The notes: a model not told the origin generated them from the sequence alone. A stretch of 64,000 nucleotides of DNA from Terriglobia bacterium (GCA_020073305.1 JAIQFK010000015.1:62001-126000); one strand, 5' to 3'; numbered from the stretch's first letter, positions 1 to 20,600 are shown. Numbers and translations are program-made.

Positions 1-1431
1 GCGCCTGCGCAGATCGCCGGGCCGCTCACCGTCTCCAGCAATCCGAACTACTTCAAGGACGCTAACGGCAACGTTCTCATCTTGAACGGGTCGCAGACCT
101 GGAATACTTTTCAGGATTGGGGGACTGACGGGTCTTTGCAGGCCTTGGATTTCGCGGCCTTCGTCCATTTCCTCACCGCGCACGGGCACAATTTTACTCT
201 GCTGTGGACGACGGAATTGCCTCATTTCTGTAGTCTTCCAACTACAGCAAGTGCTCCGCCGGATTTCACGGCTAGCCCGCTTCCGTGGGCGAGGACGGGC
301 CCCGGGGACGCAACCGATGGCGGCTTGAAATTCGATCTCACGAAGTTCGACGCAGGCTTTTTCGACCGCTTACGCGAGAGAGTGCAGGCCCTGCACCATG
401 CCGGTGTCTATGTCGGTGTCTACTTGTTCACGGGCGAATGGCTGAATATTTTTCGTTGCTCCAGCGACGGTTACCCGTTCACGGGAGCGAACAATATCAA
501 CGGCGTGGACGACGCGTACGCCGGCGGAAAGAACGGGATCGGCTCGATCACCATGACGGCGCCCAATGCGATCACGCGGTTCCAGGACGCGTACGTGGAA
601 AAGGTCATCGACACTCTGAACGATTTACCCAACGTGCTCTGGATTGTTTCCGAGGAAGCCCCCAAAAATTCCACGTGGTGGAACGACCATCAGATCGCGC
701 ACCTCCGCGCGTATGAAGCGAAGAAGCCACATCAGCACCCCATCGGATATGCCGCGCTGATTGGGGCCCCGGACACTATTCTGTACAACTCTGATGCGGA
801 TTGGGTAGCGCCGCAGGTTAGGATTTCGCCCGCCACGTCCTGCGGAAACGGGATGCCGGCCTGCAAGGTGAACGTCAATGACAGCGACCATTCCTACTGG
901 GAAATGTGGAACGAGACGCCGCAAAAGAACCGCAACTTCGCATGGGAGAACTTCATGAACGGGAACCAGGTGCTGTTCATGGACCCGTACCTGGTGTACT
1001 ACCCGCGCGAGAAACGGAACCTGTGCGTTTCTCCGACTAACGGAATTTGCAGCGCACCGGACACGCGCTATGACAATTTCAGAGACAATCTTGGGTACAT
1101 TCTGAAATATTCCCGCAGGTTGAATCTCGCCAGTGTCGCCCCGCGTGGCACCGTTTGCTCGACGGGGTATTGTCTTGTCCAGACTCCAGCCGCCGGTGCG
1201 GAGTATCTGGTTTACGCCCCTTCTGGCGGTTCGTTCACGGTCAATCTCTCGGCAATGCCAGCTTCAAGAGAACTGGCGGTAGAGTGGTTCAATCCTTCGA
1301 CCGGAGCTACGATTCCCGGAAATACAATTTCCGCTGGCTCATCCTCCCAAGCGTTCACGCCGCCGTTCAGCGGAGACGCGGTGCTGTACCTGGTGGATAC
1401 GGCGGGGCACGCCACCTCAGCCAGGCGCTGA
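1..1431 (+). CDS. Apiosidase-like glycoside hydrolase (DUF4038 type), 5' end cut by window
   Basis: The reading frame is open from base 1, so the gene starts outside the window and 476 residues are visible. The first visible stretch reads as the start of a DUF4038/apiosidase-like TIM barrel (PLTVS..NYFKDANGNVLILNGSQTW), followed by aromatic-rich barrel segments such as LPNVLWIVSEEAP. The last ~90 residues (VEWFNPSTGATI ... FSGDAVLYLVD) match the beta-sandwich 'putative collagen-binding' domain that usually closes these proteins. The family cleaves glycosidic bonds of plant polysaccharides such as apiose-containing pectin; the substrate here cannot be told. The protein is probably exported, but the signal region is not visible. 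It ends 18 bp before the next gene and heads the catabolic cluster to 6738. TTG at 82 is an internal codon, not the start. Confidence 0.75.
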   Translation, partial: APAQIAGPLTVSSNPNYFKDANGNVLILNGSQTWNTFQDWGTDGSLQALDFAAFVHFLTAHGHNFTLLWTTELPHFCSLPTTASAPPDFTASPLPWARTGPGDATDGGLKFDLTKFDAGFFDRLRERVQALHHAGVYVGVYLFTGEWLNIFRCSSDGYPFTGANNINGVDDAYAGGKNGIGSITMTAPNAITRFQDAYVEKVIDTLNDLPNVLWIVSEEAPKNSTWWNDHQIAHLRAYEAKKPHQHPIGYAALIGAPDTILYNSDADWVAPQVRISPATSCGNGMPACKVNVNDSDHSYWEMWNETPQKNRNFAWENFMNGNQVLFMDPYLVYYPREKRNLCVSPTNGICSAPDTRYDNFRDNLGYILKYSRRLNLASVAPRGTVCSTGYCLVQTPAAGAEYLVYAPSGGSFTVNLSAMPASRELAVEWFNPSTGATIPGNTISAGSSSQAFTPPFSGDAVLYLVDTAGHATSARR

Positions 1432-1449
1432 CCAGATGGAGCATAACGG

Positions 1450-2505
1450 ATGACCTTGCGCGAAATCGACACACCGGCCCTGCTGCTCGATTTGGATGCC
1501 ATGGAGCGCAATGTGGCGAAGATGGCGCGCTTCTTTAGCGACGGCCCGACCCGGCTGCGTCCGCATTACAAGAACCATAAGTGCCCGGCTCTGGCGCGGC
1601 GGCAACTCGACGCGGGGGCCATCGGCATGACGTGCGCGACTTTCGGCGAAGCCGAGGCATTGGTCTCGAACGGAATCACGAACATTCTTCTTTCGAGCGA
1701 ACTTGCCGGCGACCGCAAGATCGAGCACTTCATCGAGCTGGCCCGGCAAGCCGACATCAAGGCTGTGGTGGACAATCCGAAGGCTATCGCAGCGATCGGA
1801 GCGGCGGCAAGGGCAAGAGGGTGCCGTCCCGGTGTCCTTGTGAATGTCAATGTGGGCCAGAATCGCACTGGCGTTAAGCCCGGGGAGCCTGTACTGGAAC
1901 TGGCGCGCCAGATTCTCACCGAAGGACTGTGGTTTCGCGGCCTCATGGGTTACGAGGGCCACGTGTCACATCAGGTGGAAGGGCCAGAGAAGGAATCCGC
2001 TTACGATCTGGCCATGGGCGCCTTGATGAAGTGCCGGTGCCTGCTTCAAGAGGACGGGATTCCGGTTGAAATTGTGAGCACAGGCGGAACGGGAACGCAC
2101 CATCTGACGCCCCGATTTCCCGCCATCACCGAGTTTCAGGCGGGTTCGTACCTGGTGATGGATACGGAGTACACGAGCACTTGCAAAGATTTCGAGCGGG
2201 CGCTCACGGTGCTGAGCACAGTCATCAGCAAGACGGAAGGAGAACGGGTGGTGGTGGATGCGGGGCTGAAGTCGATCAGCGGCGAGCACGGCGTGCCGGC
2301 CGTCAAAGCCCGCGAGGGCCTGCGCCTGAGAAAGCTGAACGCGGAACACGGGATCATCGACATTTTGGATTCCCTGGCCGCGCTTGAGGTTGGCGACACC
2401 CTCGAGATCTGGGTGCACTACAGCGACGCGACGGTCAATCTGCACGACCGCATGTACGGCATCCGCAACGGGGAAGTTGAAGAAATCCTGAAGCTCCAGA
2501 GCTGA
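1450..2505 (+). CDS. D-threonine aldolase / D-serine dehydratase-like PLP enzyme (DSD1 family), copy 1
   Basis: This 351-residue protein has the alanine-racemase-like N-terminal barrel of fold-type III PLP enzymes. It opens with IDTPALLLDLDAMERN, and the RPHYKNHK motif carries the probable PLP lysine (K41). Other family features are GLMGYEGH near 170-180, a STGGTGT phosphate-binding segment, and the C-terminal HYSDATVNLH motif from about residue 323, where D-threonine aldolases and eukaryotic D-serine dehydratases bind a divalent metal. Family members split D-threonine or other D-3-hydroxy amino acids to glycine and an aldehyde, or dehydrate D-serine. It lies 4 bp before the MFS gene and has a clear paralogue at 5677. 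The exact substrate is unknown; the cluster suggests a hydroxy amino acid or amino-sugar derivative taken up by the adjacent transporter. Confidence 0.85.
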   Translation: MTLREIDTPALLLDLDAMERNVAKMARFFSDGPTRLRPHYKNHKCPALARRQLDAGAIGMTCATFGEAEALVSNGITNILLSSELAGDRKIEHFIELARQADIKAVVDNPKAIAAIGAAARARGCRPGVLVNVNVGQNRTGVKPGEPVLELARQILTEGLWFRGLMGYEGHVSHQVEGPEKESAYDLAMGALMKCRCLLQEDGIPVEIVSTGGTGTHHLTPRFPAITEFQAGSYLVMDTEYTSTCKDFERALTVLSTVISKTEGERVVVDAGLKSISGEHGVPAVKAREGLRLRKLNAEHGIIDILDSLAALEVGDTLEIWVHYSDATVNLHDRMYGIRNGEVEEILKLQS

Positions 2506-2509
2506 CCGG

Positions 2510-3742
2510 ATGATCCTGCCAAAAAAGTGGCAACTTTGCATCGTGCTGTTTCTGGCGACGACGTTGAACTACCTGGATCGCCAGACCATGAGCATTCTGG
2601 CTCCGGCGCTGCAGAAAGAACTCCATCTGGACAATGTGGCGCTGGGCTGGCTGTTTGCGGTCTTCTACTACGCCTACACGTTTTCGCAGATGGCAGTCGG
2701 CCCGATTCTCGATCGCGTGAACCTGCGCTGGGCGTTTGCATGGGCAGTGTTCCTTTGGTCTGTGGTATCCGCGCTGACGGGGTTGGCAAACGGCTTCGTG
2801 GCTCTGCTGATCTTCCGCCTGTCGCTGGGAGTGGTGGAATCCGCTAACTGGCCCGCGGGTATGCGCGTGGTGGCACGAATGCTGGAGCCGCGAGAGCGAT
2901 CGCTGGGCAACGGAATCTTCACCAGCGGAACGAGCGTCGGAGCCCTGGTGGCTCCGGGCTTGATCTTGGGTATCTCGGCGGCGTTCGGATGGCGCTGGGC
3001 ATTTGTGCTGATCGGGGCACTGGGCGCGTTCTGGATTTGCGGATGGATTCTCATGACGCGGGACCGGAAGCTGATGCCAGTGTGGCGCGAGCCGGTGGCA
3101 CCGGAAGCAGCGGGCCTCGCGGGACAATGGCGCATTTTCGCCGGCATTGCCAAGAGCCCGCGCTTTCTGCCTGTGCTGGCTGTCGCAGTGCTAGTCAATC
3201 CGTGCCTCTACTTCAGCGTCAACTGGCTGCCGACCTATTTCGCCCAGCAACGCGGCCTTGCCCCGGGCCGGCAGATGGGTTGGATTCTGACGGCCATCTA
3301 CCTCGGTCTCGACCTCGGCAATATTGCGTGCGGCAGCGCGATTCTGGCGCTGACTCGTTGGGGGAGCGGCGTTCAAAGAGCCCGTAGAATCGTGTTCATC
3401 CTGGCGACAGTGGCCGTGGTGTGTTGTGCAACCGTTCCGATTTTGCCGATGGCGGGAGCGGTCACCGCGCTGGTCCTGGTCAATTTTGGCCTGGGTATCT
3501 GGGTGGCGGTGTACTTGACCATGGCGCAGGAGGTGTCGGCGACGCACGTGTCGACGGCCATCGGGATTCTCAGCGGCTGCGGTTCCCTTGCCGGCGCCCT
3601 CGCCATGTGGGAGGTTGGGCGGGTGACCCAGCAGACGGGCAGTTTTGCCATACCGATGAGCACCGTGGCGACCGCAGCAGCCCTGGCGGCCCTGGCGGGA
3701 TGGGTGGCCAGCAAGGAATCCAGGAAACTGGTGCCGGCATGA
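2510..3742 (+). CDS. MFS transporter, anion:cation symporter (ExuT/GarP-like)
   Basis: A 410-residue polytopic membrane protein with about 12 hydrophobic segments. The N-terminal NYLDRQTMSILAPAL stretch and the GVVESANWPAGMRVV signature in TM4-TM5 are typical of the ACS (anion:cation symporter) branch of the major facilitator superfamily, which imports hexuronates, galactonate, glucarate and other organic anions with protons. It is translationally coupled to the next gene: its stop TGA (3740-3742) overlaps the ATG at 3739. Its place between a PLP lyase and a hydrolase makes it the probable importer for the substrate of this operon. The substrate itself is not readable from sequence. Confidence 0.88.
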   Translation: MILPKKWQLCIVLFLATTLNYLDRQTMSILAPALQKELHLDNVALGWLFAVFYYAYTFSQMAVGPILDRVNLRWAFAWAVFLWSVVSALTGLANGFVALLIFRLSLGVVESANWPAGMRVVARMLEPRERSLGNGIFTSGTSVGALVAPGLILGISAAFGWRWAFVLIGALGAFWICGWILMTRDRKLMPVWREPVAPEAAGLAGQWRIFAGIAKSPRFLPVLAVAVLVNPCLYFSVNWLPTYFAQQRGLAPGRQMGWILTAIYLGLDLGNIACGSAILALTRWGSGVQRARRIVFILATVAVVCCATVPILPMAGAVTALVLVNFGLGIWVAVYLTMAQEVSATHVSTAIGILSGCGSLAGALAMWEVGRVTQQTGSFAIPMSTVATAAALAALAGWVASKESRKLVPA

Positions 3743-4599
3743 GTCATCTGCCGGACTACCTCGAGGGCGCGGTGGATCTGCACGTGCATAGCGCCCCGGA
3801 CGTGGATCGCCGCCGCTTCGATGACCTGGAGCTGGCGCGCGCTGCCAAGGACGCAGGCGTAGGAGCGGTGCTCATCAAGTCGCACCAGAATTCCACGGTG
3901 GAGCGCGCGTGGCTGGTGTCGCAGTGCGTGCCCGGTATCCGTGTTTACGGCGGCTTGGTCTTGAACGAGACGGTGGGCGGGCTGAATCCGGCTGCGGTAC
4001 GGCTGGCACTCGAATTGGGCGCGCGGCAAGTCTGGATGCCGACGCGCTCGGCGCGCAATCACCGCAGTTACCACCGCCAGCCCGGTGGAATCTCCATTCT
4101 TGATGAGCAGGGAAAGCTGCTCGCGGTTGTCGAGGAAATTCTCCGCGCCATGGCGCAGAGCGACTGCATTCTCGGCACGGGCCATTTGAGCCCCCAGGAA
4201 ACTTCCGTGTTAATTGATGCCGCTTCGAACTTGGGCGTGCGAAAGATTCTCGTAACGCATCCCGAGTGGGGGCCGACATTTCATTCCTGTGAGGCGCAGA
4301 AGGAACTCGCGCAACGCGGCGACGTGTTCTTCGAACGCTGTTTCGTTTCCACCACGCACCTTTGTGGAAGCGTTCCTTTTGAAACCATTGAGCGCGCGAT
4401 CATCGAGGCGGGCGTGGAGCGCACGATCCTTTCCACGGACCTCGGCCAGCCCGAGACGCCCCCGCCCGCCGAAGGCTTGCGGCTTTATGCTGAAAGGTTG
4501 CGCAGCACCGGTTTCTCGGTCGATCAGATTCGCGTCATGATGCAGGCGAATCCCGAACGCCTGCTGGCGCATTCCACACCCACATGCCAAACGTCCTGA
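3739..4599 (+). CDS. DUF6282-type metal-dependent hydrolase
   Basis: This 286-residue protein resembles the amidohydrolase-like DUF6282 family. The start gives GAVDLHVHSAPD, the HxH metal motif of the TIM-barrel metallohydrolase fold. Further possible ligands lie in GTGHLSPQE, VTHPEWGPT and STDLGQ. The open frame extends upstream to 3421 inside the transporter gene, but ATG 3739 is chosen because the metal motif follows at once and because ATGA coupling with the transporter stop is a normal operon arrangement. It overlaps the next gene by 16 bp. The reaction is unknown; the fold suggests hydrolysis of an amide, lactone or ester in the pathway of this cluster. Confidence 0.75.
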   Translation: MSHLPDYLEGAVDLHVHSAPDVDRRRFDDLELARAAKDAGVGAVLIKSHQNSTVERAWLVSQCVPGIRVYGGLVLNETVGGLNPAAVRLALELGARQVWMPTRSARNHRSYHRQPGGISILDEQGKLLAVVEEILRAMAQSDCILGTGHLSPQETSVLIDAASNLGVRKILVTHPEWGPTFHSCEAQKELAQRGDVFFERCFVSTTHLCGSVPFETIERAIIEAGVERTILSTDLGQPETPPPAEGLRLYAERLRSTGFSVDQIRVMMQANPERLLAHSTPTCQTS

Positions 4600-5624
4600 A
4601 AGGCGCCATCATCGGCTGCGGTTTCTTCGCGGAGCGCCATATCGAAGCGTGGCGGAGAATTCCGGAAGTGGAAATTGTTGCCGCAGCCGACCCGCGCCTG
4701 GAGCGCGCGGAAACATTCGCGAACCGGGCATACCGTTCAGCGGAGGAAATGCTCGATCGCGAGCAACCCGATTTCGTGGACATCGTCACCCGCGTGGAAA
4801 CCCACCTTCCGCTGGTTCACCTGGCTCTCGAAAAGAAGATTCCGGTCATTTGCCAAAAGCCCATCGCGCCCGACTGGGAATCCGCGGTAGAAATCGTCAC
4901 TGCGGCCGAATCCGCCGGAGTGCCGTTCATGATCCACGAGAACTGGCGCTGGCAGGCCTGGTACCGCGTGGCACATCAAATGATCACGCGGGGAGATATT
5001 GGCCCTCCGATCGGCTACGGGTTTCGAACACGAACGCGCGATGGTCTAGGAGCGGAGCCCTACGCCAAGCAGTCCTACTTCCGGCAACTGCGCCGGTTGC
5101 TGATCGATGAGGCTCTGGTCCATCACATGGACACGGCTCGATTCCTGTTTGGCGAGATCGAGTCGGTGTATGCGCAGGCTAGCCGCAGGAATCCGAACGT
5201 CATCGCCGAAGACCAGGCCATACTGGTGCTGACCCATGAAGGCGCAGTTCATGGCTGGATCGATGGGCATCGCTTCCTCGATCCCGATCCGGATGGGCCG
5301 GCCATGGGCGATGCTTTCTTCGAAGGAGAGCTCGGCACGATCTCGATCCAAGGCACGGGCGATGTTTATCGGAATCATGTCCGGGCTTGGAAAAATGACG
5401 TCACCACCGGCTATCGCGGGGACAGCGTGCGCGCCACGCAGGCGCACTTTATCTCTTGCCTTAAGCAGGGCTGTTCGTTCGAATCGGGCGGACGCCAGTA
5501 CTTGCACACCTTTGCGGCGGTCGAAGCCGCGTACCGCAGTGCAGCCGAGCGCCGTTGCGTCTCGCTTGGCGAGATTCTTCGGCCAGGCGCCGCGGGCTCA
5601 CAACAGAAATTTGTGGATTCCTGA
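4584..5624 (+). CDS. Gfo/Idh/MocA family NAD(P)-dependent oxidoreductase
   Basis: A 346-residue cytosolic dehydrogenase. The Rossmann dinucleotide motif is GAIIGCGFFAERH at about residues 7-19. CQKPIAPD near 93 contains the conserved EKP-like catalytic lysine, here with Q instead of E. The second domain carries EALVHHMDTARFLFG with the expected catalytic histidine region. Family members oxidise or reduce hydroxyl groups of sugars, inositols and sugar acids. The ATG lies inside the end of the DUF6282 gene (16-bp overlap), implying co-translation. It probably interconverts a hydroxyl and a keto group on the substrate handled by the operon; no sequence feature fixes the substrate. Confidence 0.85.
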   Translation: MPNVLKGAIIGCGFFAERHIEAWRRIPEVEIVAAADPRLERAETFANRAYRSAEEMLDREQPDFVDIVTRVETHLPLVHLALEKKIPVICQKPIAPDWESAVEIVTAAESAGVPFMIHENWRWQAWYRVAHQMITRGDIGPPIGYGFRTRTRDGLGAEPYAKQSYFRQLRRLLIDEALVHHMDTARFLFGEIESVYAQASRRNPNVIAEDQAILVLTHEGAVHGWIDGHRFLDPDPDGPAMGDAFFEGELGTISIQGTGDVYRNHVRAWKNDVTTGYRGDSVRATQAHFISCLKQGCSFESGGRQYLHTFAAVEAAYRSAAERRCVSLGEILRPGAAGSQQKFVDS

Positions 5625-5676
5625 TAGATATTTTGCCTCCATCTGCGCTACAAAAGTTCGGTCAGGAGCCGACTCG

Positions 5677-6738
5677 ATGAATCTTAAGAAGACTGAGATT
5701 GAAACCCCCGCTCTCCTGGTGGATCTGGACGTCATGGAGCAGAATCTCCAGACGATGGCGCGGTTCTTTTGCAGCCGGCCGGCAAAGCTGCGGCCGCATT
5801 TCAAGAACCACCGCGTCCTGGAACTGGCCGCGCGGCAATTGGAGCACGGCGCCATCGGAATTACTTGCGCCAGGCTCTGGCAGGCGGAGAGACTGGCCAA
5901 CTTTGGGATTCGCGACATTTTGATCGCCAACGAGATCGCGGGCGAAGCGCCCGTGCGGCGTTTTGTCGAACTCTCCCGCGAAGTTCCCGTGCTGGTCGCC
6001 GTGGACAACCCGAAAGTGGTTGCCGACATGGCCCGGCTGGCGCGCGATCGCAAAGTCGAGGTGAATGTGTTGGTGGACGTCGATCTGGGGCTCAAGCGTT
6101 GCGGGCTGCCGCCTGGAGGGCCCGCCGCAGGGCTCGCAAGAACTGTCGTGGAAAGCGGACTGCGATTCCGGGGGCTCATGGGATATGAAGGCCATCTGCA
6201 GCCCTTGCTGCCGGGCCCTGACAAAGAACGCGTTGTAACGGAGGCGATGCAAGGTCTTGCGCGGACAAAGACGCTGATCGAATCGGCCGGCATTCCGGTC
6301 GGCATCGTCAGTTGCGGGGGCACGGGCGATTACTCGATTGCAGGCGCCTATGCGGGCGTTACCGAGAACCAGGCCGGTTCTTATCTACTGATGGACACGT
6401 GGTACGCGCCTTTCGCTCCGGATTTCAAGGTCGCGCTCAGCGTGCTGGCGACCGTGATCAGCAAGACTCCGGGCGAGCGGCTGGTGGTGGATGCCGGCTG
6501 CAAGGTCATCAGCGGCGAGCGCGGGCTTCCATCCGTGAAAGGGATCGCCGGACTGAAGCTCAAAGCGCTGCACGCCGAACACGCTCCCATTGAGATCCAG
6601 GATCCGGCGGTGGGCGTAGAAGTCGGCGACAAGATCGAGATCGCCGTTCATTATCACGACGGGACCATTAATCTCCACAGACAGATGCACGGCGTCCGTA
6701 ACGGTGAAGTGGAGTGTGTCTTTCAGATCGAACAATGA
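5677..6738 (+). CDS. D-threonine aldolase / D-serine dehydratase-like PLP enzyme (DSD1 family), copy 2
   Basis: A 353-residue paralogue of the gene at 1450, alignable end to end: IETPALLVDLDVMEQN, RPHFKNHR with the probable PLP lysine K43, FRGLMGYEGH, the CGGTG segment, and the C-terminal HYHDGTINLH motif from about residue 325. The open frame runs back to 5236 through the Gfo/Idh gene, but ATG 5677 is chosen because it aligns with the start of copy 1 and leaves a 52-bp gap. The two copies differ around the substrate pocket: copy 1 has YTSTCKDF where copy 2 has YAPFAPDF. They therefore probably act on related but different substrates. It is the last gene of the cluster and converges with the esterase at 6859. 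Confidence 0.85.
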   Translation: MNLKKTEIETPALLVDLDVMEQNLQTMARFFCSRPAKLRPHFKNHRVLELAARQLEHGAIGITCARLWQAERLANFGIRDILIANEIAGEAPVRRFVELSREVPVLVAVDNPKVVADMARLARDRKVEVNVLVDVDLGLKRCGLPPGGPAAGLARTVVESGLRFRGLMGYEGHLQPLLPGPDKERVVTEAMQGLARTKTLIESAGIPVGIVSCGGTGDYSIAGAYAGVTENQAGSYLLMDTWYAPFAPDFKVALSVLATVISKTPGERLVVDAGCKVISGERGLPSVKGIAGLKLKALHAEHAPIEIQDPAVGVEVGDKIEIAVHYHDGTINLHRQMHGVRNGEVECVFQIEQ

Positions 6739-14139: not shown

Positions 14140-15261
14140 TTGAAGACACGCGTCGACAATCGCCTCGGCCTGGTGCGGAAGAGCAGGGGCATTGGTGCGT
14201 CCGAGCTGGCTCGTCGCGTGCACGTCAGCCGCCAGACCATCTACGCGATCGAAGCCGGAACCTATGTTCCCAATACCGAGGTCGCGTTGAACCTGGCCCG
14301 CGAGCTGGAAGTGACCGTCGACGAACTGTTTTCACTCCAGCCAGGATCTCAGCAGTCGCCCGAGTCGCTGGCCGCCGAAATGTTGAGTGCTGCGGCGCCG
14401 GCGAAGGGTCAGCCCGTTCGAGTCTGCCAGATCGGATCGCGCTGGGTCGGCGTGCCCGTCAGCGCTTCTCCTTACTACATGCCGGAAGCCGATGGCATTA
14501 TCAAGCGAACCGGCCAAAAAAATGGCCGTGCGGACTTGATCGTGTTTGCGAAGGAAGAAGCGGCTCAGAAGCGGCTTGTACTGGCGGGCTGCGACCCGGC
14601 CACAGGTCTTCTTTCCCGAATGGTGGAGAAGATTAGCGGTGTGGAGATCGTCTCCGCCGCTGCTTCGAGCAAGCTGGCCTTGGCTTGGCTTAAGGAAGGC
14701 AAAGTCCACATCGCTGGTTCACATCTTGAGGATCCCAGGACCGGAGAATTCAATCTGCCCTTCATTCGCAGGGAATTTCCGGACGAAGATTTCAGGGTCG
14801 TGACCTTTGCGCGGTGGGAGGAAGGACTGGTCATCGCGCCCAGGAACCCGAAAGGTGTGCACAAGGTGGAAGACCTGGCCCGGAACAACGTCAGGTTTGT
14901 GAATCGCGAGCCTGGTTCGGGAAGCCGTGCTCTGCTGGACAAACTTCTGAAGAAAGCCGGGATGGACGCGCATCGAGTTCAGGGATACGATCGAGTCGCT
15001 TATGGTCATCTTGCCGCCGCTTATTGCGTGGTGTCTCACGATGCGGACGTGTGTCTGGCGACGCGGTCCGCGGCCCGGACGTTTGGCCTGGATTTCATTC
15101 CCCTGAATAGTGAACGCTACGATCTGGTGATGCGCAGGAGAACCACCGATCTCCCGGCCGTCAAGGCGTTCCTGGATGTTTTGCAGCGAGCCGCGCTACG
15201 CCGCAAGCTGGAGGTACTCGCCGGATATGACACATCCGAAACGGGGGCGATGGTGGCTTAA
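14140..15261 (+). CDS. XRE-type HTH regulator with periplasmic-binding-protein-like ligand domain
   Basis: A 373-residue cytosolic regulator starting at TTG. Residues ~7-62 form an XRE helix-turn-helix (RKSRGIGASELARRVHVSRQ followed by TIYAIEAG). Residues ~85-360 match the PBP-like substrate-binding domain (PF12727 type) found fused to helix-turn-helix or molybdopterin proteins, with RFVNREPGSGSRALLDKLL as the typical anion-binding loop. Such proteins are thought to sense molybdate, tungstate or molybdopterin and control Mo-enzyme genes. It follows the molybdopterin-fold protein by 3 bp, so the two are almost certainly co-expressed and perhaps functionally paired. No modABC or moe genes are in the window. 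The regulatory target is unknown. Confidence 0.75.
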   Translation: MKTRVDNRLGLVRKSRGIGASELARRVHVSRQTIYAIEAGTYVPNTEVALNLARELEVTVDELFSLQPGSQQSPESLAAEMLSAAAPAKGQPVRVCQIGSRWVGVPVSASPYYMPEADGIIKRTGQKNGRADLIVFAKEEAAQKRLVLAGCDPATGLLSRMVEKISGVEIVSAAASSKLALAWLKEGKVHIAGSHLEDPRTGEFNLPFIRREFPDEDFRVVTFARWEEGLVIAPRNPKGVHKVEDLARNNVRFVNREPGSGSRALLDKLLKKAGMDAHRVQGYDRVAYGHLAAAYCVVSHDADVCLATRSAARTFGLDFIPLNSERYDLVMRRRTTDLPAVKAFLDVLQRAALRRKLEVLAGYDTSETGAMVA

Positions 15262-15340
15262 GCGCTCTACTCCCGGATTCGAGAAAAGTCATCCCTAACC
15301 TAGCGTTTCTACCTCTCCAGCGTCGGGCTCGCGCCAATAG

Positions 15341-15895
15341 CTAGGCGGAGAGCCTGCGGCGGCTCTTCATTTCCCGGGAAATTTCGGCCAGCTCCGGTGC
15401 ACTCAACACCCTTTGGCCCAGCGCGATGAGCGTCTGGTCCTCGGCGGCCATGTGGGAACGATACAGCTCAGCCAGACGGCCCGCGGCGGCACCGTAGCGC
15501 TCCTGCAATTCGCGGCTCGCCGCCGACCCGCTCTGCAACTCGCCTGCAACGGCTTTGAGTTCGGCATAGAGCCGGTCTGCTTCCCGGTGCTGATCTTCGA
15601 GGCTGGCGATGAATGCGCGCTCTTCGTGGCTCAGGCGCGGCTGGAGTCTCGGAAACACGCTCTCCTCTTCATCGGCCGTGTGCAGTACACCGTTGGAATC
15701 GAAAAACCGGAAGCATGCCGCCATTGCCTCGATTGCTTCGCCAGTGCTGCGATCGAGATGGCCGGCCACGCGCTCGAGTGTTGCCAGGCGCTCTTCGATG
15801 CGGCGATGGCACGCCGTGAGGTGATCGAGTGGCCGATCGAGCGTCGATCCCGATTCCTGCGATTTCGGCTGGAGTAGCTGTTCCGGGGTGATCAT
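15341..15895 (-). CDS. Hemerythrin-like domain protein
   Basis: A 184-residue protein with the four-helix hemerythrin pattern: LDHLTACHRRIEERL, HTADEEESVFPRL, LEDQHREADRLYAEL and YRSHMAAEDQTLIAL supply histidines and acidic residues spaced for a non-haem di-iron centre. Family members bind O2 or NO or store and sense iron. It lies 27 bp after the Crp/Fnr gene on the same strand, and the Ric gene is divergent just beyond, so it probably acts in nitric-oxide or iron-sulfur damage defence. It is unusual only in being separate from Ric, which has its own hemerythrin domain. Confidence 0.8.
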   Translation of the reverse strand: MITPEQLLQPKSQESGSTLDRPLDHLTACHRRIEERLATLERVAGHLDRSTGEAIEAMAACFRFFDSNGVLHTADEEESVFPRLQPRLSHEERAFIASLEDQHREADRLYAELKAVAGELQSGSAASRELQERYGAAAGRLAELYRSHMAAEDQTLIALGQRVLSAPELAEISREMKSRRRLSA

Positions 15896-15922
15896 CTGCT
15901 TTCATTGTACGGCGGCGCGCCG

Positions 15923-16603
15923 CTAAAGCTCGGCTGCGGCCTCGCGCTCCAGGCCTGCACGGTCGAGAATGGCGAGCTGGTGATCCTCGAGTCGTACCAG
16001 TCCGTCTGCCCGGAATCGCATCAGATTTCGGGAAACCACTTCTCGGACCGTTCCCAACCGTGAGGCCAGCTCCTGGTGAGTGATGGGCAGCGGAAACTCG
16101 TCCCGTCCCGCTTCCTGGCTCATGTCGAGGAGCAGTCGCGCCAGACGTCCGGTAACGCTGCCGAAGGTGATGCTCTCGATCGCGGCGACGAGGTGTCGAA
16201 GCCGCGCACCGACCTTCGCGAGAATCTTGAGCGTAATATCCGGGTGCGTACGGCAGACGCGGTAGAAATCTTCCTTATTGACGAAATAGGTCACCACGTC
16301 GACGAGGGCCCGCGCGGACGCCGGATAGGGGCCGCCATCGAACAGAGGCAGCTCGGCTACCGAGGAAGGAGCCGATTCGAGCCCGATCACCAGCTCGCGT
16401 CCGGACTGCGAAGTCTTGAAGATCTTGACGGTTCCCTTCACGATGAGGAACATCCCCGCGCACGGTTCGCCTTCCCAAAACAGCATCTCTCCCGCTGCGT
16501 AACGCCGCTCGATCAATAGTTGCGTGATCGACGAGATTTCGCTTGCGTCCAATCCGGAAAACAACGCTATGCCGGGTAAAATCGCAGGCTTCTGTGAGGC
16601 CAT
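15923..16603 (-). CDS. Crp/Fnr-family transcriptional regulator (NO/redox type)
   Basis: A 226-residue regulator with an N-terminal cyclic-nucleotide-binding-like beta-barrel (MLFWEGEPCAGMFLIVKGTVKIF) and a C-terminal winged helix whose recognition helix is TVREVVSRNLMRF. Only two scattered cysteines are present, so it lacks the FNR iron-sulfur cluster. The E-x-x-S-R pattern in the recognition helix is FNR/DNR-like rather than CRP-like (E-x-x-G-R). It is followed by the hemerythrin gene (27 bp) and diverges from ric across a 98-bp spacer with a perfect palindrome. Best reading: a DNR/NNR-like nitric-oxide sensor controlling this island and itself. The effector is not proven. Confidence 0.82.
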   Translation of the reverse strand: MASQKPAILPGIALFSGLDASEISSITQLLIERRYAAGEMLFWEGEPCAGMFLIVKGTVKIFKTSQSGRELVIGLESAPSSVAELPLFDGGPYPASARALVDVVTYFVNKEDFYRVCRTHPDITLKILAKVGARLRHLVAAIESITFGSVTGRLARLLLDMSQEAGRDEFPLPITHQELASRLGTVREVVSRNLMRFRADGLVRLEDHQLAILDRAGLEREAAAEL

Positions 16604-16641
16604 TCCCTTAGTCTGCCAGATCCTGGATCATTTTCGGTACC

Positions 16642-16657
16642 TGTGACCAGCGTCACA
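16642..16657. promoter_or_regulatory. Perfect 16-bp palindrome, likely Crp/Fnr operator
   Basis: TGTGACCAGCGTCACA consists of 6-bp arms around a 4-bp centre and matches the CRP-type consensus TGTGA-N6-TCACA exactly. It lies 38 bp before the regulator's start codon and 44 bp before that of ric, so it could serve both divergent genes. Confidence 0.7.
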
Positions 16658-16701
16658 AGCGAACGCGCGTTTCGGCCCTATTCTGGTTTCGGGAGATCGG
16701 A

Positions 16702-17400
16702 ATGCTACGTTCAAGCGAGAAAACGGTTGGCGAGTTGGTGGTCGAGAATCCCGCTACGGCTCGTGTTTTCGAGAAATACGGAATTGACTATTGTTGCGGA
16801 GGAAAACACTCGCTCGATGATGCTTGCCGGGAACGCGGAGTTGCGCCGGCGGCCTTGCTGGACGAATTGAGTCAAGCCAGTCCTAAGCCCCAGCCAGATA
16901 AGCGCGATTGGCAAGGCGCTGCGCTCCGGGATTTGATCGAGCACATCGTCTCGCGGCACCACGCGTATCTGAAATCGGAGCTGCCGCGACTCGCGGAACT
17001 TTTCGCCAAGGTGGTGCGCGCACACGGCGAAAGGGAGCCCGTACTGGCCGAGGTGAGTGAGATCTTCGGCATCATGAAGGAAGAGCTGGACGCACACCTG
17101 ATGAAAGAGGAAATGATCCTGTTTCCCACGATCGTGAAACTCGAAGCCGGCAACGCTTCGGGCGCGCCATGTTCGATCGAGCACCCCATCGCACGGATGG
17201 AGTACGAGCACGAAAGCGCCGGCCGGGCGCTCGCGCAGATGCGCCACCTCACCCGCGACTACTACATACCAGAGGAAGCCTGCAACACATACCGGGCGCT
17301 TTTCGCCGCGATGATCGAGCTCGAAGCTGATCTGCACGAGCACATCCATCTGGAAAACAACATCCTATTCCCGCGGGCGGCCGCGCTGCAGGCTCGGTAG
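16702..17400 (+). CDS. ric: Iron-sulfur cluster repair di-iron protein Ric (ScdA/YtfE/DnrN)
   Basis: A 232-residue cytosolic protein with the full family architecture. The N-terminal ScdA_N domain has TVGELVVENPATARVFEKYG followed by the conserved DYCCGG (C31, C32). The hemerythrin-like di-iron domain has LIEHIVSRHHAYL (H81, H86), HLMKEEMILFP, MEYEHESAG and LHEHIHLENNILFPR. Ric proteins restore iron-sulfur clusters damaged by nitric oxide or peroxide, and bind or reduce NO. The length is normal. Its gene diverges from a Crp/Fnr regulator with a palindrome between them, so NO-dependent induction is likely. Confidence 0.95.
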   Translation: MLRSSEKTVGELVVENPATARVFEKYGIDYCCGGKHSLDDACRERGVAPAALLDELSQASPKPQPDKRDWQGAALRDLIEHIVSRHHAYLKSELPRLAELFAKVVRAHGEREPVLAEVSEIFGIMKEELDAHLMKEEMILFPTIVKLEAGNASGAPCSIEHPIARMEYEHESAGRALAQMRHLTRDYYIPEEACNTYRALFAAMIELEADLHEHIHLENNILFPRAAALQAR

Positions 17401-17621
17401 AGTGTTCGAGCTGGCCGGATGTGGCGGCCGGTTGGCCCACCCCGAGGTTTGAAATTGTCAATTTATTGCGGTGGGTCGTGGGATTCGTACCACCCCCTCA
17501 CGTTGTAAAGGATGATTCCACGCCGGTGCTTTGTCCGCGTTCCTCCGGCTGAGCCTCCGGTGCTCCTGCGGGTAACAGCCGGCTCAAGCGGGTTTACGGG
17601 CCACACGGGCAAGGATTCGCG

Positions 17622-20600
17622 TCACCGCATTGCGGCCAGGGCGACTCGAGCGCCCGCCAGGTCGGGGCTCATCTCAACGGCCTGGCTTAGTTCGGCTTTG
17701 GCCTGGGTTTGATCATCAAGACCCAGGTATCCAAGTCCAGTGAGGTAATGTGCATGAGCGAGACGAGCGCGAAGAGAAAGCATCCAGCCGTCTCGCGCGC
17801 TGTGGTCGCCACCCGCCGCGGCGGCCTGCTGGAGAGTGGCTTTACCGGACTCGACGAGGCCCGCGAAGAGTGTTTGGGCTTTATCGGCCTGACCCAGCTT
17901 CAGGAGAGCCAGCGCCTGGTAATAGAGCTGGGCACCGCCCGCGGCGTGACCACCGCGCCGGCGCCAGCCAGCCTGGACTGGCGCTTCTGCTTTCTGCCAG
18001 GCTTCCACCGCCTTCGCGTGGTCGCCCAAGCCTTCGTGGGCCACTCCCGTCCAGTAAGCCACCTCTGCCTCCCGCATGCCGGCGCCGTCTCCGGCGGCTC
18101 CTAAAGGCAGGTTCGAGGGAATGGTCACGGCGGCCTGAAGATCGGCAAGAGCGTCCTTGTACCGCATGGCTTCAATGTACTTTCGGGCGCGCAAGATGTG
18201 GGCGTCCGTCCAATGCTCGGTAACATTGAGGTTCGCGCCTTCGGCAACGGCGAATTGCCGCTCCGCCATCATCCGGATGGCTTCGTCGTAGGCTCCGGCA
18301 GCTATCTTGATCGCGATAAACCCGTTTTGTGCATCATCGCGTTGTGCGACCACAGTTGCGCTCTTATCGAAAAAGGGGAGCCGCTGTTCCAGAGGAACAC
18401 CGGCCTGCTCATATAATTCAGCGAGCTCCGTAAAGTGCAGCGGATATTTGCGCTCGGCAACGGTGGCCTTCTCCATTTCGGCAATGGCCCGACTCAGGTC
18501 GCCCTGCGGCTTCTGGTGCGCATAGGCCGTCGCCAGGTTACGATGCACGATGGCAAACGACGGGTCTAGGGCCGCGGAAGCTTCCCACATTCTTGTGGCC
18601 TCCTCCGGCTGCCAGTCATATAAGAGATTGCCCAGATAATAAGGCGCGCGACCGTCGCGCGGATTGGCTTTCATGGCCGCGCGAAGCACGTCGATAGCCT
18701 CGTTCTGGAACGGAAAGACGTAGTCCGGCGGCATGGCCATTGCCCGCGCGTCGTAATCGCACTCCTTCTGTGCCTGTCCCACCTTTCCGGCGAAATAGCC
18801 CAGATAGTAGTAGGCCATGGGATGGATCTTGGATTTGTCCGGCGCGGCGGCGACCATTTGCAGAAGCACATCGGTGCCGTCCTGCCAGAGACCGGCGTTC
18901 AGGTATTCCGCCGCCGTCTCCTGAGCAGTGGCGGGATGACGGCTCATCGTAGACGCGAGGGTCCGCGCCGCCTCGCGGCTCTTTGAAGTCAGCCATTTTT
19001 CCGCCATGGAGTGAACGTCGAGAGGATCAGCCTTTTGAGCGGCGTCCAGCACCTGCAGCGCGTCAGTGGGACGCCCCAGATGGCGCAGCACCGCAGCCTT
19101 CAGGTTCTGCGCGCGGATATTGAGCGCGTTGGAATCGATGGAGCGGTCAACCAGATCCAGGGCCGCGGCCATGTCGCCGCGGGAGGCCGCGATCTCCGCC
19201 AGCGAATAATAACCCGCGGCTTTCCACGCCTGGCTCCAGGTGGCCTTGTAGAGGTGCGCACAGGCTTCGTCGGCTTTGCCTTCGGCTTTCAAGGTGGCGC
19301 CGAGATAGTAACTCGCTTCGCCATCCTTGGGACTTGTATACCGGTCCGTGAGCTGGTCCAACGCGGCGCGCAGGTGCCTCTCCGCCTCCGCGTATCTTGC
19401 TTTCCGGAAATAGGTGATCCCCAGAGCCGTGTTCACTCGTGCATCGCCGGGGTCGCGCCGCAGCGCCTCCTCCCAATACGGCATCGGATCGATCGCCGGA
19501 TCGTGGAACTGCTGCGCGCGCAGCCCGATCAGGTAGAGCTCCTCACTCGTCTTGACCTCCGCGGGCGGCGCCGGTGTGGTGACCGGCTTGGGCATCGCTA
19601 GGGGCGTGAGTCGAATCGGACGGTACGAAACCAGTTCCCTGCCCTGGTCCGAAATAGAGGCGACAAGATCGTGCTCGTCGATTCCCGCCGGCACAGCAAC
19701 CGTCTTGACGTACGGCTTCGCGGGGTTGATCGCCACTGTCTCCTGGAGCAGCATTTTGTCTCCTGCCTGGAGCCTGACCTCTGATGCCGCGTGCGCCGAA
19801 GTGGTGTAAAAACCGATCTTGGCCGCGCCATTGGCGACTTCCAGATTCACGGCGGCCTCAAGGTTGGCCTTCTTCACACCGCCGATGTCGCGAAACGGAT
19901 ACCAATTCATGGAGAACGACCGCGTCTCATAGGGCTCGAGCCAGCTATAGTCGGGCTGGTTATCCGAGTAGGCCCCAACCATCAGCTCGATGTAAGGCCC
20001 ATCCTCGTCGGTGAGGATCTTGTCCCACGCGCGGCCAAACGGCCCGTTGCCCCAGGTCCAGAACTTCTTGCCGGGGACCATGTTGTGGTCCGCGATGCTC
20101 ATGGTGCCGGCCTCTTTCCCGTGGTCGTAGCCGGCAAAAAAGTCGTCCTGGTAATTCCAGGCGAACACCGAGTTGGCCGAAATGTGGTTCTTGTACCAAC
20201 TGATATCGACGCCTTTGGTGAAGTCAGCGCCAGCATACCTGGTAGTGGAGAACGGCCAGGCGGTGAACTCCCTCTTACCGTGGAAGACGCCGTATTGCGT
20301 GCTGGGAGGAAAGATGACCTGGTAATTCTCATTGGCATGGACGGCGAGGTTCGCAAAACACAACATGGTGTTCACCAGGGGCGTGCGGTTCAGGATTCGC
20401 ACTGACGCCTCCAGGTACGCCTTGCCCGGCCGTAGCGTATAGCCTACTGCCCAGCGCATGCGCTGGCGCACTTCCAGCTCGCCGACCCAAATGGTCTTGC
20501 TGCCGTCGGCGTTCTCCTCCACCTTGTACTGCACGGGAGTAAAGGTGCTGGCACGGTGGTGGTGCGGGATGTTCCACTCTACGCCGCCGGAGATCCACGC

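What the first reader, a model, noticed from the sequence alone, without database searches (positions are those of the whole stretch)
1..6738. Six-gene catabolic cluster with two paralogous DSD1-type PLP enzymes
Genes are coupled by gaps of 4-52 bp or by overlaps. They combine a glycoside hydrolase, ACS transporter, DUF6282 hydrolase, Gfo/Idh dehydrogenase and two D-threonine-aldolase-like enzymes that differ in the predicted substrate loop. I know of no described pathway with this set. A route for a glycan-linked or D-configured hydroxy amino compound is a guess.
Basis: inference. Interest (0 to 1): 0.65.

Follow-up and report, generated by a model that had tools for sequence, protein, structure and literature searches.

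The report
Half of a split catabolic regulon
These soil-bacterium genes are one half of an undescribed, repeatedly conserved pathway that seems to cut a nitrogen-bearing compound off plant or microbial glycosides and break it down, using two vitamin-B6 enzymes whose usual metal-binding site is altered.

Summary
They are part of something larger. In the genome the run starts about 2.2 kb before the window, with two ABM-domain genes and a second secreted glycosidase. The set recurs in eleven Acidobacteriota genomes, one of them outside the window's class, with shuffled order. In nearly all of them it goes with a second module: SMP-30-like, amino-acid permease, DhaK/DhaL-type kinase, an LsrF-type thiolase, ABM, AraC. 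In several relatives the second PLP gene sits inside that module; here the module lies on another contig. All 19 cluster PLP enzymes (both paralogues) carry Tyr where D-threonine aldolase has its metal-ligand His347, so they should not be filed as D-threonine aldolases. DUF6282 models as an amidohydrolase-type barrel. The glycosidase's nearest fold is GH140, from a low-confidence model. I read it as a split regulon that degrades a glycoside-bound amino compound to DHAP plus an acyl-CoA. The substrate and the order of steps are inferred. I found no described pathway with this set, though most subscription literature could not be searched.

The parts
1..1431 (+). Secreted GH140-like glycosidase (GHb); the full gene begins about 69 bp upstream of the window
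   Evidence: PF12904 above cut-off, PF19815 just above; fold search of a low-confidence model: best match GH140 apiosidase 8t9w, Z 14.0; 69-78% identical copies near the PLP gene in most relatives
1450..2505 (+). Fold-type III PLP enzyme, paralogue a; H347 of D-threonine aldolase is Tyr
   Evidence: PF01168+PF14031; 39% identical to A. xylosoxidans D-threonine aldolase; Lys59, Arg157, Tyr187, Asp349 kept, His347 replaced
2510..3742 (+). MFS inner-membrane transporter, ACS-like (TIGR00893 best, below its cut-off)
   Evidence: in most relatives the clusters carry an APC amino-acid permease instead
3739..4599 (+). DUF6282 protein, predicted amidohydrolase-superfamily metal hydrolase (lactonase or amidase)
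   Evidence: PF19799 231 bits; predicted (beta/alpha)8 barrel, PTE-like/amidohydrolase best matches Z about 15; H15xH17, H149, H174, D234 invariant
4584..5624 (+). Gfo/Idh/MocA NAD-dependent dehydrogenase
   Evidence: PF01408 + C-terminal domains; nearest solved relative 5uhw series, E 1.8e-46, next 1e-18
5677..6738 (+). Fold-type III PLP enzyme, paralogue b; Tyr at the metal-His position and no His193
   Evidence: the b clade is monophyletic (99/95) over eight genomes and is next to ABM-LsrF genes in five of them

Best explanation
The window carries half of a split catabolic regulon. Secreted GH140-like glycosidases free a polyhydroxylated compound that bears an amino group, and an MFS or amino-acid permease imports it. 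Gfo/Idh and the other dehydrogenases, with DUF6282 acting as lactonase or amidase, turn it into the amino substrate of the PLP enzymes. Those act as lyases with an altered or absent divalent-metal site; dehydrative deamination is more likely than retro-aldol cleavage. The carbon skeleton then goes to the second module: a DhaK/DhaL-type kinase phosphorylates it, the ABM protein isomerises it, and the LsrF-type enzyme thiolyses it to DHAP and an acyl-CoA. Shown: gene content, linkage, co-occurrence, conserved and changed active-site residues by alignment, predicted folds. Inferred: the substrate, the order of steps and every reaction.
For: Same gene set with varied order in eleven genomes. In one even draw of 396 genomes the PLP-a enzyme (E<=1e-85), the close GHb copy and the LsrF subclade above 75% identity occur in the same two genomes only, although 72 genomes have some LsrF relative at E<=1e-80. 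LsrF present in 10 of 11 cluster-bearing genomes, the copies in relatives being 73-92% identical to the window genome's (in G336 a contig-end fragment). LsrF, ABM and PLP-b adjacent in five genomes (L058, L097, L101, L106, L109). The window genome keeps SMP-30, permease, DhaK, DhaL, LsrF and AraC on contig C2. LsrF is 65% identical to E. coli LsrF with D57, K203, D251 kept and a relative passes the LsrF equivalog cut-off, 487 against 297 bits. PLP Lys and Arg157 kept, metal His lost in all 19.
Against: No enzyme has been assayed and no substrate is identified. DUF6282 has no match in four cluster-bearing genomes, MFS is missing from most, and the Gfo/Idh of the distant genome is only 31% identical, so steps differ or are substituted. 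ABM falls far below the LsrG cut-off (24 against 135 bits). G545 has no LsrF match at E<=1e-60. Some loci are MAG contigs of a few kb.
Confidence: 0.5

Rival explanations
1. An amino-aldonate route that works like the ong pathway: an amino sugar is oxidised to its lactone (Gfo/Idh), opened or deacetylated by DUF6282, and the 2-amino-2-deoxyaldonate is deaminated by the fold-III PLP enzyme to a 2-keto-3-deoxyaldonate.
For: OngC, a fold-III PLP enzyme, deaminates 2-amino-2-deoxygluconate to KDG after deacetylation by OngB (PMC9537276). DUF6282 has an amidohydrolase fold. The carrier resembles sugar-acid transporters or is an amino-acid permease.
Against: No RidA, KDG kinase or SSS transporter was recognised among the cluster genes annotated here. 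The glycosidases resemble GH140, not hexosaminidases. DhaK-ABM-LsrF is not what KDG needs.
Confidence: 0.2
2. A branched-sugar (apiose-type) pathway in which GH140-like enzymes release apiose, Gfo/Idh oxidises it and a DhaK-type kinase handles erythrulose; the PLP enzymes process an amino-acid aglycone or are side activities.
For: GHb's best structural match is a GH140 apiosidase; true PF13204 genes sit in relatives' clusters. The Gfo/Idh is nearest to the 5uhw/5uhz/5ui9/5uia/5uib series, which I recall as an Agrobacterium D-apionate oxidoisomerase; that identity is from memory and was not verified.
Against: PF13204 is below cut-off for the window's own glycosidases. Apiose catabolism as I know it has no amine step, while the PLP genes are among the most constant of the set.
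Confidence: 0.15
3. The PLP enzymes are racemases, epimerases or PLP-binding accessory proteins rather than lyases, the lost metal His marking a return to alanine-racemase-like chemistry.
For: Loss of the metal-ligand His in all 19, and of His193 in every b paralogue. Alanine racemases share the fold and use no metal (established knowledge).
Against: The PF14031 domain typical of the metal-dependent lyases is retained; Asp349, Arg157 and the PLP lysine are conserved; duplicates are kept in most genomes.
Confidence: 0.1
4. Neighbouring but functionally unrelated genes.
For: Parts are missing or swapped in individual relatives.
Against: Repeated linkage with shuffled order across lineages, and identical patchy distribution of three genes in one 396-genome draw.
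Confidence: 0.05

Closest known systems
ong cluster for oxidised chitin (GlcNAc1A), Pseudoalteromonas prydzensis (PMC9537276)
   Same: Secreted or periplasmic glycosidase, TonB-type outer-membrane protein in some relatives, inner-membrane carrier, amidohydrolase-type hydrolase, fold-III PLP enzyme
   Different: Glycosidase, carrier and hydrolase belong to other families; no KdgK or RidA recognised; extra dehydrogenases and a DhaK-ABM-LsrF end module
D-threonine aldolase / 3-hydroxy-D-aspartate aldolase (AxDTA 4v15, BhcC 6qkb)
   Same: Fold, PLP lysine, Arg157, Tyr187, phosphate-binding residues, Asp349
   Different: Metal-ligand His347 is Tyr, Gln81 and Asp321 are Ala, His193 missing in all b paralogues; 32-39% identity
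Lsr AI-2 degradation (LsrK, LsrG, LsrF) of enterobacteria
   Same: LsrF 65% identical with catalytic residues kept; an ABM-fold protein (the fold of LsrG) next to it in relatives
   Different: DhaK/DhaL-type kinase instead of LsrK; ABM far below the LsrG cut-off; no Lsr-type ABC transporter seen in the module; linked to glycosidases and PLP enzymes
GH140 apiosidases (BT_1012, 8t9w)
   Same: Best fold match of GHb; C-terminal PF12904-type domain; true PF13204 genes in relatives' clusters
   Different: GHb and GHa score below the PF13204 cut-off; specificity unknown

Membership tests
D-threonine aldolase | PLP Schiff-base lysine (Lys59) and Arg157 | tested here: met
   K and R in all 19 cluster sequences
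D-threonine aldolase | Divalent-metal ligands His347 and Asp349 | tested here: not met
   Asp349 kept, His347 is Tyr in all 19; the neighbouring His346 is not conserved either (ligands from PMC4401734)
D-threonine aldolase | Putative base His193 | tested here: not met
   Absent in all eight b paralogues and in 6 of 11 a paralogues; present in window PLP-a
3-hydroxy-D-aspartate aldolase BhcC | NCBIfam NF045642 equivalog cut-off 690 bits | tested here: not met
   247 and 213 bits
DSD1-like fold-type III PLP superfamily | PF01168 plus PF14031 above cut-off | tested here: met
GH140 apiosidase | PF13204 above cut-off | tested here: not met
   12.8 and 13.4 bits against 26.5
GH140 apiosidase | GH140 fold | tested here: inconclusive
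   Best match 8t9w Z 14.0, but model mean pLDDT 52
Amidohydrolase superfamily (DUF6282) | (beta/alpha)8 barrel with HxH on strand 1, His on strands 5 and 6, Asp on strand 8 | tested here: met
   Model mean pLDDT 63.5; residues invariant and placed at those strands; best VIA matches amidohydrolase/PTE Z about 15; plain Foldseek order mixed with other barrels
LsrF | NF006081 equivalog cut-off 297 bits and catalytic K203/D57/D251 | tested here: met
   487 bits for the G551 copy; residues kept in the window genome's copy
LsrG | NF007791 equivalog cut-off 135 bits | tested here: not met
   24 bits for the G551 copy
ong pathway | D-aminoacylase-type OngB, KdgK, RidA, SSS carrier with the PLP enzyme | tested here: not met
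   None recognised among annotated cluster genes; genome-wide search not done
D-apiose oxidative pathway | ApsD, ApnL, ApnO and following enzymes | not tested
   Only the nearness of the Gfo/Idh to the 5uhw series was seen; identity of 5uhw recalled from memory

The most novel reading that the evidence does not exclude
The regulon is a carbon-and-nitrogen route that enters autoinducer-2 breakdown chemistry. A metal-free PLP ammonia-lyase turns an amino-keto polyol cut from a glycoside into a methyl-dione of the DPD type. A DhaK-type kinase, the ABM isomerase and LsrF then turn that into DHAP and acetyl-CoA. LsrF chemistry would here serve nutrition, not signalling.
Probability: 0.12. Interest if true: 0.75.

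Novelty: new variant of a known kind. Interest (0 to 1): 0.52.

Why it matters
It would be an undescribed way for soil Acidobacteriota to use a glycosidically bound nitrogen compound, with DUF6282 and a PLP clade of unknown chemistry placed in one testable context. The His-to-Tyr change at the metal site makes a direct question: does this fold catalyse beta-hydroxy amino acid chemistry without its metal? An LsrF-type thiolase tied to glycosidases suggests that this chemistry is used outside quorum sensing.

Tried and rejected
(1) Plain D-threonine aldolase or BhcC function: rejected on the metal His and the equivalog scores. (2) Reading the six genes as the complete unit: rejected after the upstream genes and the C2 module were found. 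(3) Literature on DUF6282 and on LsrF-like or LsrF-family proteins: no papers in the library; on apiose catabolism: nothing close. (4) The low-confidence GHb model (pLDDT 52) is not used for residue-level claims. (5) Foldseek alone on DUF6282 lists many unrelated barrels; amidohydrolases stand out only after realignment and with the motif. (6) Contexts of more distant PLP relatives (L070-L073, about 40% identity) show no shared neighbours. (8) OngC and LsrK sequences were not at hand, so no direct comparison was made.

Full report
Observation. The window edge cuts the first gene. Upstream in the same genome (L005 = G000:C6:45001-64000, in which L005 position 17001 is window position 1) lie two ABM-domain genes (14784-15116, 15109-15417), GHa (15426-16910) and the complete GHb (16932-18431), all in the same direction and closely spaced. 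The run from ABM1 to PLP-b is about 9.0 kb. No sigma-70-like + strand site or convincing intergenic terminator breaks it, but the scan is only a consensus scan.

Conservation. A search of a genome collection gave nine relatives of PLP-a in Acidobacteriota MAGs. With the window genome and G336, which shares only the phylum with it, eleven genomes were compared. Examples: GHb-PLPa-MFS-Gfo (G544); PLPa-MFS-DUF6282-Gfo-like with a divergently placed GHb (G336); GHb-PLPa-DUF6282-Gfo-SDR (G546, G547); GntR-GHb-OMP-PLPa-Gfo with an amino-acid permease about 7 kb from PLPa (G548); ADH-DUF6282-permease-GntR-GHb-PLPa-Gfo (G550). DUF6282 has no match at E<=1e-40 in G544, G548, G549 and G551. MFS is seen only in G000, G336 and G544.

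The second module. In L097, L101, L106 and L109 PLP-b is next to ABM and a DeoC/LacD-type gene, with an AraC-type regulator on the other side; L097, L101 and L109 continue with DhaK or DhaL-type genes, and L097 and L101 with an amino-acid permease and an SMP-30-like gene. L058 of G336 shows PLP-b, ABM, the DeoC-type gene and ADH. The DeoC-type protein passes the LsrF equivalog (487 bits against 297). In the window genome it is 65% identical to E. coli LsrF, with D57, K203 and D251 kept. The window genome holds ADH, SDRs, SMP-30, permease, DhaK, DhaL, LsrF and AraC together on contig C2 at about 43-54 kb, without ABM or PLP-b, which are in the window's cluster instead. G550 and G551 have both modules on one contig; G546 has the LsrF/ABM/DhaK module about 13 kb from its PLP gene, with no second PLP copy found. 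LsrF occurs in ten of the eleven genomes.

Chance. In the same even draw of 396 genomes of the phylum, PLP-a (E<=1e-85), GHb at high similarity, and an LsrF above 75% identity all occur in exactly G000 and G336, while 72 genomes have some LsrF relative at E<=1e-80. For two genes each found in two of 396 genomes, the chance of hitting the same pair is about 1 in 78,000. Only the best few candidates per genome were scored, so remote copies could be missed.

PLP enzymes. A tree of 30 sequences puts the cluster enzymes in one clade (100/99). The b paralogues are monophyletic over eight genomes (99/95); the a paralogues are paraphyletic with weak forks. Against A. xylosoxidans D-threonine aldolase, all keep Lys59, Arg157, Tyr187, Thr233, Gln249, Ser252, Tyr260 and Asp349. 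All have Tyr at 347, where the metal-ligand His should be, and Ala at 81 and 321. His193 is absent from every b enzyme and from six of eleven a enzymes. A Glu/Asp at 188 and, in 18 of 19, a His at 190 are new (ligand roles from PMC4401734). Four more distant Acidobacteriota relatives (L018-L021) share the Tyr. What replaces the metal is unknown; no coordinates were inspected.

Other parts. DUF6282: eight alternating strands and helices, HxH on strand 1, His after strands 5 and 6, Asp on strand 8, best realigned matches in the phosphotriesterase/amidohydrolase group at Z about 15; model confidence is moderate and plain Foldseek is not specific. GHb: best realigned match GH140 apiosidase 8t9w, Z 14.0, then related proteins, from a poor model; PF13204 is not reached by sequence, but true PF13204 genes lie in relatives' clusters. 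Gfo/Idh: one solved relative stands out, the 5uhw series; that it is a D-apionate oxidoisomerase is my recollection only.

Mechanism. Established family knowledge: PLP enzymes need an amine; LsrF cleaves a phosphorylated dione to DHAP and acetyl-CoA in AI-2 breakdown; DhaK-type kinases phosphorylate DHA-like ketones. Inferred: glycosidases release, carriers import, dehydrogenases and DUF6282 prepare, PLP enzymes remove the amino group, and kinase, ABM and LsrF finish. The closest characterised analogue in logic is the ong pathway (PMC9537276), but its other components were not recognised here.

Verdict. It is a new variant of a known kind (a catabolic gene cluster), of interest for the altered PLP clade and the LsrF link.

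Noticed in passing
G000:C21:4168-5232 (L006 4147-5235) and G000:C42 (L007 3127-4353): Two further DSD1-type proteins in the genome: one keeps a His-x-Cys metal motif; the other begins with a twin-arginine-like signal sequence and has Asn at the metal-His position.
   Followed up: partly
G000:C34:172186-172761 (L065): A second DUF6282 gene, 38% identical to the window's, with no sugar-catabolic neighbours recognised.
   Followed up: partly
L005:4778-5161: A short ORF that nearly repeats the C-terminal part of the Gfo/Idh-like gene at L005:1850-2998: a truncated duplicate about 1.8 kb downstream.
   Followed up: no
window:6859-10157: Directly after the cluster: a 741-aa ORF on the minus strand that looks like an alpha/beta hydrolase, overlapping the start of a divergent second Gfo/Idh-like gene.
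   Followed up: no
L018-L021 (G021, G023, G025, G125): Distant PLP relatives (about 40% identity) share the Tyr at the metal-His position but none of the cluster neighbours, so the altered site is not confined to this cluster.
   Followed up: partly
72 of 396 Acidobacteriota genomes: LsrF-type proteins are widespread in the phylum at 56-69% identity, apart from this cluster; their role is unknown.
   Followed up: no
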